Below are positions 59,341 through 62,141 of a stretch of 64,000 bases of DNA, piece by piece. Under the pieces are notes generated by a model. It ran no database searches. It worked only from the letters and a program-made list of their open reading frames with translations, and was not told where the DNA came from. The stretch spans positions 62,001 to 126,000 of the forward strand of contig SCRD01000013.1 of NCBI GenBank assembly GCA_004298155.1. Direction: 5' to 3'. The stretch's first letter is position 1. Every line of letters begins with the position of its first letter. Both the position numbers and the translations under genes were made by a program. Origin of the DNA: Acidobacteriota bacterium (GTDB lineage: Bacteria; Acidobacteriota; Terriglobia; UBA7540).

Positions 59341-59452
59341 AATCTCATCCAGAGTGGCCGAGGGACGGGCCCTAAGACGCCACGGCAACCGCCCGGTAAA
59401 TAGTTCCGGGGCCAGGTGCTAACTCCCGCCCGTAATTGGGGGAGATGAGACG
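59341..59452 (+). promoter_or_regulatory. SAM-I (S-box) riboswitch aptamer
   Basis: The closing stem P1 is formed by TCTCATC (59343-59349) and GATGAGA (59443-59449). Between them lie AGAGTGGCCGAGGGA, GGGCCCTAAGACGCC, CGGCAACC and CCAGGTGCTAACTCCC, the conserved order of the SAM-I family, including the k-turn and pseudoknot segments. Binding of S-adenosylmethionine would stabilise P1 and let the downstream terminator form. It precedes a threonine-synthase-like gene, not a typical S-box target. Confidence 0.93.
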
Positions 59453-59473
59453 GAGGACGAAAGGTATTGACTG

Positions 59474-59504
59474 AGCCTCCCCGATGAGATCGGGGGGGCT
59501 TTTT
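59474..59504 (+). terminator. Intrinsic terminator of the SAM-I riboswitch
   Basis: Arms 59474-59485 and 59489-59500 pair over 12 positions (one G-T) with a GAG loop, followed by TTTT. The 5' arm contains CTCCCC, which can pair with GGGGAG just before the P1 3' strand, giving a plausible antiterminator. The arrangement predicts OFF at high SAM. Confidence 0.88.
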
Positions 59505-59573: not shown

Positions 59574-60821
59574 GTGAGTTATCTAAAACTTTTGAAATGT
59601 CGGCAGTGCGGACGGACCTATCAGATTGAGCCTATTGCCGCCTGCGAAGATTGCTGGGCCCCTTTGGAAGTGGTTTACCAATACGATCTGATTCGAGCGG
59701 AAATTCCGCGAAAACAAGTGGAATCACGCCTGCCGACGATGTGGCGTTACAAAGAACTGCTGCCCGTGGCCGGTGAGCCTGCCGTGGGACAGTCAACGGG
59801 GTACACGCCACTGGTAGCAGCTCCACACCTTGCCAAGGCGCTGGGAGTGCGCGAACTCTACCTCAAGAACGACGCCGTCAACTGTCCTACGCTTTCCTTC
59901 AAGGACCGTGTGGTTGCCGTGGCACTGAGCAAGGCGCGCGAATTTGGCTTTGACACCGTGGGATGTTCTTCCACCGGGAACCTGGCAAACTCTGTTGCCG
60001 CACAGGCGGCTGCAGGTGGATTCAAGAGCTTCATTTTCGTGCCCGCCGATTTGGAGCCGGAAAAACTCATTAATACACAGATTTACGGTGCTACGCTGGT
60101 GAAGGTGAGGGGAAATTACGACCAGGTCAACCGGCTCTGTTCTGAGATCTCGCAGAAGTATCCCTGGGGAATGGTGAACGTCAACCTGCGCACCTACTAC
60201 TCTGAAGGCTCGAAGACCTTCGGCTATGAGATCGCGGAACAGCTTGGCTGGCGCGTGCCGCAGAACATTGTGGTTCCGATGGCCGGCGGCTCCCTGATCA
60301 CCAAGATCTACAAGGCTTTTGGTGAGCTCCAGAGGCTCGGTTGGGTTGAGACGGCCGCAACCAGGTTTTACGGCGCCCAGGCAACAGGATGCTCTCCCAT
60401 CACTACGGCGGCCAAGAACCGTACCTGCGAAATCATCCCGCAGAAGCCGAACACGATTGTAAAATCTCTATCGATCGGCAACCCGGCAGACGGCTTTTAC
60501 GCCTCCAGGGTAATTCAGGAGACTGGCGGAGCTGGCGAAGACGTTTCTGATCTCGAAGTGATTGAGGGTATTCGATTGCTAGCCCAGACTGAGGGGGTTT
60601 TCGCGGAAACCGCGGGCGGAGTGACCGTTGCGGTAGCGCGCAAGCTGGTTCAAAATGGAGTTTTGAACCCCGCTGAATCCATTGTGCTGGCCATTACAGG
60701 CAACGGCCTGAAGACCATCGGAGCTGTGAACGGAGAATTCCGGGCTGAGGAAGCCATCCCGCCGAAGCTGGCTGAATTTGAAGACCGTTTCCTGAATCTC
60801 CACGCGACGGCTAGTGCCTGA
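59574..60821 (+). CDS. thrC: Threonine-synthase-like PLP enzyme with N-terminal zinc ribbon
   Basis: The 415-aa product starts at a GTG with GGAGG 4 bases upstream; the frame is open from 59484 but that start lies in the terminator. The first 40 residues form a zinc ribbon (Cys 9, 12, 24, 27). The fold-type II PLP core follows, with K110 in NCPTLSFKDR, SSTGNLANSVAA and a GGSLITKIY loop. Family members convert O-phosphohomoserine to threonine. SAM-I control and the sulfur-carrier gene downstream suggest that this one may make homocysteine by sulfhydrylation; sequence alone cannot separate the two. Confidence 0.88.
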   Translation: MSYLKLLKCRQCGRTYQIEPIAACEDCWAPLEVVYQYDLIRAEIPRKQVESRLPTMWRYKELLPVAGEPAVGQSTGYTPLVAAPHLAKALGVRELYLKNDAVNCPTLSFKDRVVAVALSKAREFGFDTVGCSSTGNLANSVAAQAAAGGFKSFIFVPADLEPEKLINTQIYGATLVKVRGNYDQVNRLCSEISQKYPWGMVNVNLRTYYSEGSKTFGYEIAEQLGWRVPQNIVVPMAGGSLITKIYKAFGELQRLGWVETAATRFYGAQATGCSPITTAAKNRTCEIIPQKPNTIVKSLSIGNPADGFYASRVIQETGGAGEDVSDLEVIEGIRLLAQTEGVFAETAGGVTVAVARKLVQNGVLNPAESIVLAITGNGLKTIGAVNGEFRAEEAIPPKLAEFEDRFLNLHATASA

Positions 60822-60900: not shown

Positions 60901-61218
60901 TTGCAAATTACAGTTCGGATCCCACCGCCCTTGAGAAAGTATACCGAGGGCGCCGAAAGTGTTGAAACTGCGGCCCAAAACCTTGCTGACCTTTTCGACG
61001 GGCTCGACCAGAAGTTTCCAGGCATCAAGAAAGTGCTTTGTGCTGAGGACGGCACTCCACAACGTTTTCTGAATATTTATGTCAACGATGAGGATATTCG
61101 CTTTCTGGGGGGCTTGCAGTACAATTTCAACGACGGTGATGAAATACTGTTAATCCCCGCCATCGCCGGGGGCGCTCCGACTGAAGTAGCGGAACCTCTC
61201 TGCCCTGGATGCCACTAA
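60901..61218 (+). CDS. ThiS/MoaD-like sulfur carrier protein with C-terminal tail
   Basis: The 105-aa product starts at a TTG with GGAGG 9 bases upstream. It is beta-grasp: QITVRIPPPLRKYTEGAE at the start, NIYVNDEDIRFLGGL in the middle, then DGDEILLIPAIAGG. In this family a free C-terminal Gly-Gly is activated by a ThiF/MoeB-type enzyme and receives sulfur as a thiocarboxylate. Here the Gly-Gly (90-91) is followed by 14 more residues ending CPGCH, so proteolytic maturation would be needed. The gene lies between the threonine-synthase-like and homoserine kinase genes and overlaps the latter. No activating enzyme or JAMM protease is in the window. Confidence 0.83.
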   Translation: MQITVRIPPPLRKYTEGAESVETAAQNLADLFDGLDQKFPGIKKVLCAEDGTPQRFLNIYVNDEDIRFLGGLQYNFNDGDEILLIPAIAGGAPTEVAEPLCPGCH

Positions 61219-62141
61219 CCACTAAGGCCATGCCCCAGCGCGGTTCAGTACGCGTTCCTGCAACCAGTGCCAACCTTGGATGTGCCTTTGATTGTGCGGC
61301 GCTCGCCTTGAATCTTTATCTCGACATCCACGTAACACGCAGGTCCGACCTTGGTGTAAGTGTGCACTACAAGGGCGTGAACCCGGACAGAATTCCCTCG
61401 GACGAAAGTAACCTGATTGCCGCCAGCATAAAGAAAATTCTTCTGCGCTGGGGCAAAGATTACGGATTCAATCTGGAAATCAACAATCAGATTCCGGTTG
61501 GAGTGGGACTGGGATCCAGCGCGGCGGCTATTGTGGGCGCCATCGCGGCGGCCCACTGGCTTACGGAAAGAGCGCTTTACGATGACGAACTGGTTTCACT
61601 TGCGACGGAGATTGAAGGGCACCCGGACAACGTTGCGGCGGCGTGGCACGGAGGTTTCACGGTGGCTATGCAGGAGAACCAGCACGTATGGTCGTATTCT
61701 TCTCCAGTCCCTGATCTGTTCCACGTCGTGCTGGTAATCCCCGACTATGCGCTTCCAACGGAAAAAGCTCGGGCCGTGCTGCCTCCCCAGTATTTACGGG
61801 CCGATGTTACTCACAACATTCAGAGGGCCGCCGTACTGGCAGCTCAGATGTTTTCCGGTAAGGTTGATTTCCACCCCGATCTTTTTGACGACCGCCTGCA
61901 TCAACCTTATCGGGCAGGTCTCGTGCCCGGCCTGAAAGAAGTTCTTACGATGAGACACTCTAGTTTGTACGGTCTCTGCCTCAGCGGCGCCGGGCCGTCA
62001 ATCCTGGCTTTCACTAAAGGAAGCTCCCCCGAAGTGGGTGAGGCCATCTGCCAGGTACTTCGTGAAAAAGGTGTGGAATCCAGTTATTCCGTTCTCGTCC
62101 CCGACAATCGGGGCGCTAAAGGCTGGAGCTTGCCTGTCTGA
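61209..62141 (+). CDS. thrB: Homoserine kinase
   Basis: The 310-aa GHMP kinase has VRVPATSANLGCAFDCAALAL (14-34, shown by motif), the ATP loop PVGVGLGSSAAAIVGAI (about 96-112), EGHPDNVAAAWHGG and LCLSGAGPSILAF near the end. It phosphorylates homoserine to O-phosphohomoserine, the substrate expected for the first gene of the operon. The ATG at 61209 overlaps the sulfur carrier gene by 10 bases; an ATG seven codons later (61230) is an alternative start with a better ribosome site. It belongs to the same SAM-controlled operon. Confidence 0.92.
   Translation: MPLTTKAMPQRGSVRVPATSANLGCAFDCAALALNLYLDIHVTRRSDLGVSVHYKGVNPDRIPSDESNLIAASIKKILLRWGKDYGFNLEINNQIPVGVGLGSSAAAIVGAIAAAHWLTERALYDDELVSLATEIEGHPDNVAAAWHGGFTVAMQENQHVWSYSSPVPDLFHVVLVIPDYALPTEKARAVLPPQYLRADVTHNIQRAAVLAAQMFSGKVDFHPDLFDDRLHQPYRAGLVPGLKEVLTMRHSSLYGLCLSGAGPSILAFTKGSSPEVGEAICQVLREKGVESSYSVLVPDNRGAKGWSLPV

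What the first reader, a model, noticed from the sequence alone, without database searches (positions are those of the whole stretch)
61169..61215. Sulfur carrier with a 14-residue tail ending Cys-Pro-Gly-Cys-His after its Gly-Gly
ThiS/MoaD proteins act through a free C-terminal Gly-Gly. Here Gly90-Gly91 is followed by APTEVAEPLCPGCH. Other systems (for example HcyS of Wolinella and QbsE) carry residues after Gly-Gly that a JAMM metalloprotease removes. The tail here is longer and carries a C-x-x-C pair, which could bind metal or form a disulfide, or be a signal for processing. The tail codons also contain the thrB start, so the extension may have arisen through gene overlap.
Basis: partly seen in the sequence, partly recalled or inferred. 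Interest (0 to 1): 0.7.

Follow-up and report, generated by a model that had tools for sequence, protein, structure and literature searches.

The report
Ordinary tail on methionine-pathway sulfur carrier
The Cys-rich tail is an unconserved run-on at the end of a small sulfur-carrier protein; the gene itself belongs to a riboswitch-controlled methionine-making operon of a type described in Streptomyces in 2024.

Summary
The 105-aa ThiS/MoaD-like protein at 60901-61218 ends IAGG-APTEVAEPLCPGCH. The tail is not a conserved feature. Among 88 distinct thrC-linked orthologues, 63 have 0-2 residues after Gly-Gly, and only one other has any C-x-x-C. The same-genus sister stops after GGAV; its DNA beyond the stop aligns with the tail codons, and both Cys codons differ. 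AlphaFold gives most of the tail pLDDT below 50. The thrB start is most likely at 61230, after the stop, so there is no gene overlap.

The gene sits in SAM-I riboswitch (59342-59451), threonine-synthase-like PLP enzyme, sulfur carrier, homoserine kinase. The PLP enzyme is a distinct family (105 proteins) with threonine-synthase active-site positions uniformly replaced. It rarely co-occurs with MetX/MetA (11 both; 146 and 88 alone). SAM-I riboswitches precede it in 38 of 39 evaluable acidobacterial loci and in several other phyla. This matches the MetM/MetO homocysteine-synthase pair reported from Streptomyces albulus in 2024 (known here only through a citing paper).

Most likely function: MetO thiocarboxylate supplies sulfur to O-phosphohomoserine to make homocysteine. 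The tail is tolerated or trimmed by the genome's JAMM protease. New member of a known kind.

The parts
59342..59451 (+). SAM-I riboswitch aptamer (RF00162), the only one found in this genome
   Evidence: 81 bits, E=1.7e-17; single match in G000
59473..59501 (+). Terminator-like hairpin followed by T run: likely expression platform of the riboswitch
   Evidence: Consensus scan; inferred role
59574..60821 (+). Threonine-synthase-like PLP enzyme, predicted MetM-type homocysteine synthase (GTG start after GGAGG)
   Evidence: PF00291 and TIGR00260; altered active-site positions shared by 105 family members
60901..61218 (+). ThiS/MoaD sulfur carrier, predicted MetO (TTG start, 105 aa)
   Evidence: PF02597; nearest solved structures 4n6e_B and 3dwg_C (the latter M. 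tuberculosis CysO, identified from memory); confident fold, mean pLDDT 85.5
61168..61173 (+). Gly90-Gly91, the conserved carrier terminus
   Evidence: Invariant in the 34-sequence alignment
61174..61215 (+). Non-conserved 14-residue tail APTEVAEPLCPGCH
   Evidence: Tail comparison; sister DNA lies after a stop; residues 89-102 pLDDT <50
61230..62141 (+). Homoserine kinase ThrB (ATG 61230 preferred over 61209)
   Evidence: TIGR00191 248.5 bits over cut-off; start conserved in sister; only match over cut-off in the genome

Best explanation
The locus is a SAM-riboswitch-controlled homocysteine (methionine) operon: metM (threonine-synthase-like), metO (sulfur carrier) and thrB. ThrB makes O-phosphohomoserine. 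MetO is adenylated and thiocarboxylated at Gly91 by a MoeZ-type E1 encoded elsewhere in the genome. MetM uses the MetO thiocarboxylate (or sulfide) to replace the phosphate and yield homocysteine for MetH. High SAM switches the operon off. The 14-residue tail on this copy of MetO is a lineage-specific run-on caused by a shifted stop codon. It carries no conserved function and must be trimmed, probably by the genome's Mec-type JAMM protease, if Gly91 is to become a thiocarboxylate. Shown here: gene order, riboswitch, family relationships, altered active site, lack of MetX/MetA, presence of MetH, MoeZ and JAMM, and non-conservation of the tail. Inferred: the reaction, the sulfur route and the trimming.
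For: SAM-I riboswitch upstream, the only one in the genome. Riboswitch upstream of the same gene in 38 of 39 evaluable acidobacterial loci and in 7 of 13 loci from other phyla, including Verrucomicrobia, Planctomycetes, NC10, Mariprofundus and a deltaproteobacterium. ThrC-type gene directly upstream of the carrier in all 30 class loci and in nearly all non-actinobacterial loci of the second set. Near-exclusion with MetX/MetA across 299 genomes: both 11, ThrC-type only 146, acyltransferase only 88, neither 54; odds ratio 0.046. Own genome lacks MetX and MetA and has MetH. A separate threonine synthase sits beside aspartokinase. 105 family members replace threonine-synthase residues (Tth T88, S155, R160, Q164) with L, N, Y, S. 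In three relatives MetY-MetX (one locus truncated) occupies the carrier's place in the same operon. Carriers fused to a NIL domain occur in two loci. A citing paper reports MetM (O-phosphohomoserine to homocysteine), a sulfur-carrier-family MetO and an upstream SAM riboswitch in S. albulus (PMC12172450). An actinomycete locus in the collections shows that architecture, 50% identical. Tail.
Against: No biochemistry was done, and the primary MetM paper is not held. Fifteen genomes of the same family show no close carrier beside the riboswitch-controlled ThrC-type gene, so the carrier is not obligatory there, or the CysO paralogue stands in. Three relatives keep the gene next to MetY and MetX. 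The own genome also has cystathionine gamma-synthase/lyase-like enzymes, so a parallel trans-sulfuration route is possible. The co-occurrence test is not corrected for phylogeny. The M. aeruginosa homologue acts mainly as threonine synthase in vitro and was not shown to make homocysteine in vivo (PMC12172450).
Confidence: 0.82

Rival explanations
1. The ThrC-type enzyme is an ordinary threonine synthase, and the operon makes threonine; the SAM riboswitch only balances the aspartate family.
For: TIGR00260 thrC matches above cut-off; thrB is in the operon; the M. aeruginosa homologue has threonine synthase activity (PMC12172450).
Against: A second ThrC beside aspartokinase; uniform replacement of active-site residues; linkage to a sulfur carrier across phyla; near-exclusion with MetX/MetA.
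Confidence: 0.1
2. The CPGCH tail is functional in this lineage, as a metal site, disulfide or protease recognition tag, newly evolved on this carrier.
For: Cys is over-represented just after Gly-Gly in the family (9 of 66 at +1 against 3.3% expected, uncorrected for phylogeny); the paralogous CysO of this genome ends GG-SMTCCICS; L133 has a 17-residue Cys-rich tail.
Against: The same-genus sister lacks the tail and both Cys codons; tail length and sequence vary freely; predicted disordered.
Confidence: 0.06
3. The sulfur carrier serves cysteine synthesis (CysO/CysM/Mec type) rather than homocysteine synthesis.
For: Nearest solved relatives are CysO-like; the genome has a cysM-mec-cysO-moeZ cluster; actinobacterial relatives sit beside CysM.
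Against: That cluster has its own CysO (41% identical); the window copy is tied to the ThrC-type gene and a SAM riboswitch.
Confidence: 0.07

Closest known systems
MetM/MetO of Streptomyces albulus (Hasebe et al. 2024, doi 10.1128/aem.01247-24; known here through PMC12172450)
   Same: Threonine-synthase-like homocysteine synthase, sulfur-carrier-family partner, upstream SAM riboswitch
   Different: Acidobacterial; thrB is in the operon; the carrier has a 14-residue tail, whereas the actinomycete relative seen here ends at Gly-Gly
HcyS/HcyF/HcyD of Wolinella succinogenes (details from memory; cited in PMC5764234)
   Same: Protein thiocarboxylate supplies sulfur for homocysteine; residue after Gly-Gly removed by a JAMM protease
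   Different: Wolinella uses a MetY-type enzyme on O-acetylhomoserine; here a ThrC-type enzyme and no MetX; JAMM and E1 are not in the operon
CysO/CysM/Mec of Mycobacterium tuberculosis
   Same: Same carrier subfamily (3dwg); the genome has a full CysM-Mec-CysO-MoeZ set
   Different: The window gene is not linked to CysM and lies under a SAM riboswitch
QbsE/QbsD (thioquinolobactin; from memory)
   Same: Carrier with extra residues starting with Cys after Gly-Gly, removed by a JAMM protease
   Different: Siderophore pathway; two residues rather than 14

Membership tests
MetM/MetO homocysteine synthase system | ThrC-type PLP enzyme distinct from threonine synthase | tested here: met
   The genome's other ThrC aligns to family members at only about 30-37% identity; altered active-site positions in 105 members
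MetM/MetO homocysteine synthase system | Gly-Gly sulfur carrier partner gene | tested here: met
   60901-61218, GG at 90-91; linkage conserved
MetM/MetO homocysteine synthase system | Upstream SAM riboswitch | tested here: met
   RF00162, 81 bits; also in the actinomycete relative
MetM/MetO homocysteine synthase system | Direct sequence similarity to S. albulus MetM/MetO | not tested
   S. albulus sequences not held; as a proxy, the Nonomuraea pair with the same architecture is 50% and 42% identical
MetM/MetO homocysteine synthase system | O-phosphohomoserine to homocysteine activity | not testable with these tools
   Needs an enzyme assay
HcyS/HcyF/HcyD (Wolinella) | Carrier linked to MetY-type sulfhydrylase with O-acetylhomoserine supply | tested here: not met
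   Neighbour is ThrC-type; no MetX/MetA in genome
HcyS/HcyF/HcyD (Wolinella) | JAMM protease and E1 in the same operon | tested here: not met
   Both are on another contig, C2
CysO/CysM/Mec | Carrier encoded with CysM and Mec | tested here: not met
   A separate paralogue holds that place
Canonical threonine synthase | Conserved active-site residues T88, S155, R160, Q164 (Thermus numbering) | tested here: not met
   L, N, Y, S in essentially all of 105 members; that these are substrate-binding residues is from memory

The most novel reading that the evidence does not exclude
MetO-type carriers are often made as precursors with variable, sometimes Cys-led tails or whole fused domains (homoserine kinase in L018, NIL in L109 and L116) after the Gly-Gly, and a JAMM protease releases the active carrier. 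The window tail would be one extreme of a general maturation step.
Probability: 0.25. Interest if true: 0.45.

Novelty: new member of a known kind. Interest (0 to 1): 0.28.

Why it matters
The tail itself matters little. The operon suggests that the recently described O-phosphohomoserine route to homocysteine is widespread in Acidobacteriota and beyond, and that it largely replaces MetX/MetA there. That would explain methionine synthesis in many genomes that automated tools would call auxotrophic; PMC5764234 stated in 2018 that at least one homocysteine pathway remained to be found. The fused and tailed carriers raise a testable question about precursor trimming.

Tried and rejected
A conserved CxxC metal or disulfide site was rejected (2 of 88 orthologues). 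A metO-thrB overlap as the origin of the tail was rejected: the likely thrB start is 61230 and the sister lacks an ATG at 61209. A wholly new homocysteine pathway was my working idea until PMC12172450 showed prior description; earlier literature searches did not reveal it, although one search did list that paper. Checking threonine-synthase phosphate-binding residues in the literature found nothing, so their roles are from memory. The primary paper is not held. Other failed calls. Cys enrichment in tails was tested: weak overall (p 0.04 without L133), stronger at +1 (p 3e-4), uncorrected for shared ancestry; left unexplained.

Full report
The window encodes a 105-aa ThiS/MoaD-like carrier at 60901-61218 with Gly90-Gly91 followed by APTEVAEPLCPGCH. 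The Gly codons are 61168-61173 and the tail codons are 61174-61215.

The tail is not conserved. A search of 299 genomes of the same class and a scan of named genomes gave orthologues with the ThrC-type neighbour. Of 88 distinct complete ones, 20 end exactly at Gly-Gly, 43 have one or two more residues, 13 have tails of 10 to 34 residues, and two carry whole fused domains. Only this protein and L133 have a C-x-x-C. The same-genus relative L004 ends GGAV-stop. Its DNA after that stop aligns with the window's tail codons, but where the window has the two Cys codons TGC it has TTC and CGC. AlphaFold models the core well (mean pLDDT 85.5) and leaves residues 89-102 below 50. The simplest reading is a shifted stop codon that turned spacer into coding sequence.

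The proposed overlap with thrB fails. The ATG at 61209 is ACG in L004, while ATGCCCCAGCGC at 61230 is conserved. The homoserine kinase therefore most likely starts 11 bases after the carrier's stop.

The neighbourhood identifies the pathway. A SAM-I riboswitch lies at 59342-59451 (81 bits), followed by a terminator-like hairpin at 59473-59501, then a ThrC-type PLP enzyme, the carrier and ThrB. It is the only SAM riboswitch found in the genome. The same riboswitch lies upstream of the same gene in 38 of 39 evaluable acidobacterial loci (loci cut at a contig end set aside) and in 7 of 13 loci of other phyla; two further non-acidobacterial loci had none.

The ThrC-type enzyme is probably not the genome's threonine synthase. 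Another ThrC is encoded beside aspartokinase. In 105 members of the ThrC-type family, positions equivalent to Thermus T88, S155, R160 and Q164 are L, N, Y and S. From memory, several of these contact the substrate phosphate in true threonine synthase.

Distribution fits a methionine role. Across 299 genomes, 157 have the ThrC-type enzyme and 99 have MetX or full-length MetA. Only 11 have both, against 146 and 88 with one alone and 54 with neither (not corrected for phylogeny). The window's genome lacks MetX and MetA but has MetH. In two relatives with intact loci the same riboswitch operon reads ThrC-type, MetY-like, MetX, ThrB, so MetY-MetX occupies the place of the carrier; a third, truncated locus shows the same order. 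Fifteen genomes of the same family, the two just named included, show no close carrier beside the enzyme, and most of those examined keep thrB in the riboswitch operon, so the carrier can be lost or supplied elsewhere.

The maturation enzymes are present but unlinked. Contig C2 carries CysM, a JAMM protease, a second carrier ending IAGG-SMTCCICS, and a ThiF-rhodanese E1. Trimming of the window carrier by that JAMM protease is inferred by analogy with HcyS/HcyD and QbsE/QbsD (from memory).

This system has been described. PMC12172450 reports that Hasebe et al. (2024, Appl Environ Microbiol 90:e01247-24) identified MetM in Streptomyces albulus. MetM converts O-phosphohomoserine to homocysteine, metM has an upstream SAM riboswitch, and metO is the S. 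albulus counterpart of a sulfur-carrier-family gene next to thrC in Microcystis. I could not read the primary paper. An actinomycete locus in the collections, Nonomuraea gerenzanensis, has riboswitch, MetM-like (50% identical) and MetO-like ending at Gly-Gly, with the same active-site motifs. The window operon is therefore best filed as a MetM/MetO operon with thrB. The enzymatic defining feature is untested here, and the direct comparison with the S. albulus proteins could not be made.

What is left that is mildly new: the wide distribution and near-exclusion with MetX/MetA; carriers fused after Gly-Gly to ThrB (L018) or to a NIL domain (L109, L116); and a Cys bias at the first residue after Gly-Gly (9 of 66 against 3.3%, uncorrected for ancestry).

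Noticed in passing
L060:7310-7669 (G000 contig C2): The genome's second carrier, in a cysM-mec-cysO-moeZ cluster, also has a Cys-rich tail after Gly-Gly (SMTCCICS).
   Followed up: partly
L018:1498 onwards / L171 (G174): Carrier fused in frame to homoserine kinase, with the Gly-Gly internal (GGAPTAAVSVVVPATSANLG); ThiS and GHMP kinase domains both match Pfam.
   Followed up: partly
L109:6001-6513 and L116:6001-6531: Carrier fused after Gly-Gly to a NIL domain; L109 also has a 96-bit SAM riboswitch, CysM, JAMM and MoeZ nearby.
   Followed up: partly
L156, L157, L172: SAM-riboswitch operon (L172 truncated upstream) in which MetY-like and MetX genes sit between the ThrC-type gene and thrB in place of the carrier.
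   Followed up: partly
Orthologue tails: Cys is over-represented at the first position after Gly-Gly (9 of 66); cause unknown, ancestry not corrected.
   Followed up: partly
L072:6796-8184 (G000 contig C18): A 462-aa JAB-ThiF fusion protein, apparently an unrelated ubiquitin-like conjugation or sulfur-transfer gene.
   Followed up: no
L076 and L077 (JAMCXS MAG): Two metM-metO-thrB operons with riboswitches in one assembly, each about 80% identical to the window in MetM: duplication or mixed bin.
   Followed up: no
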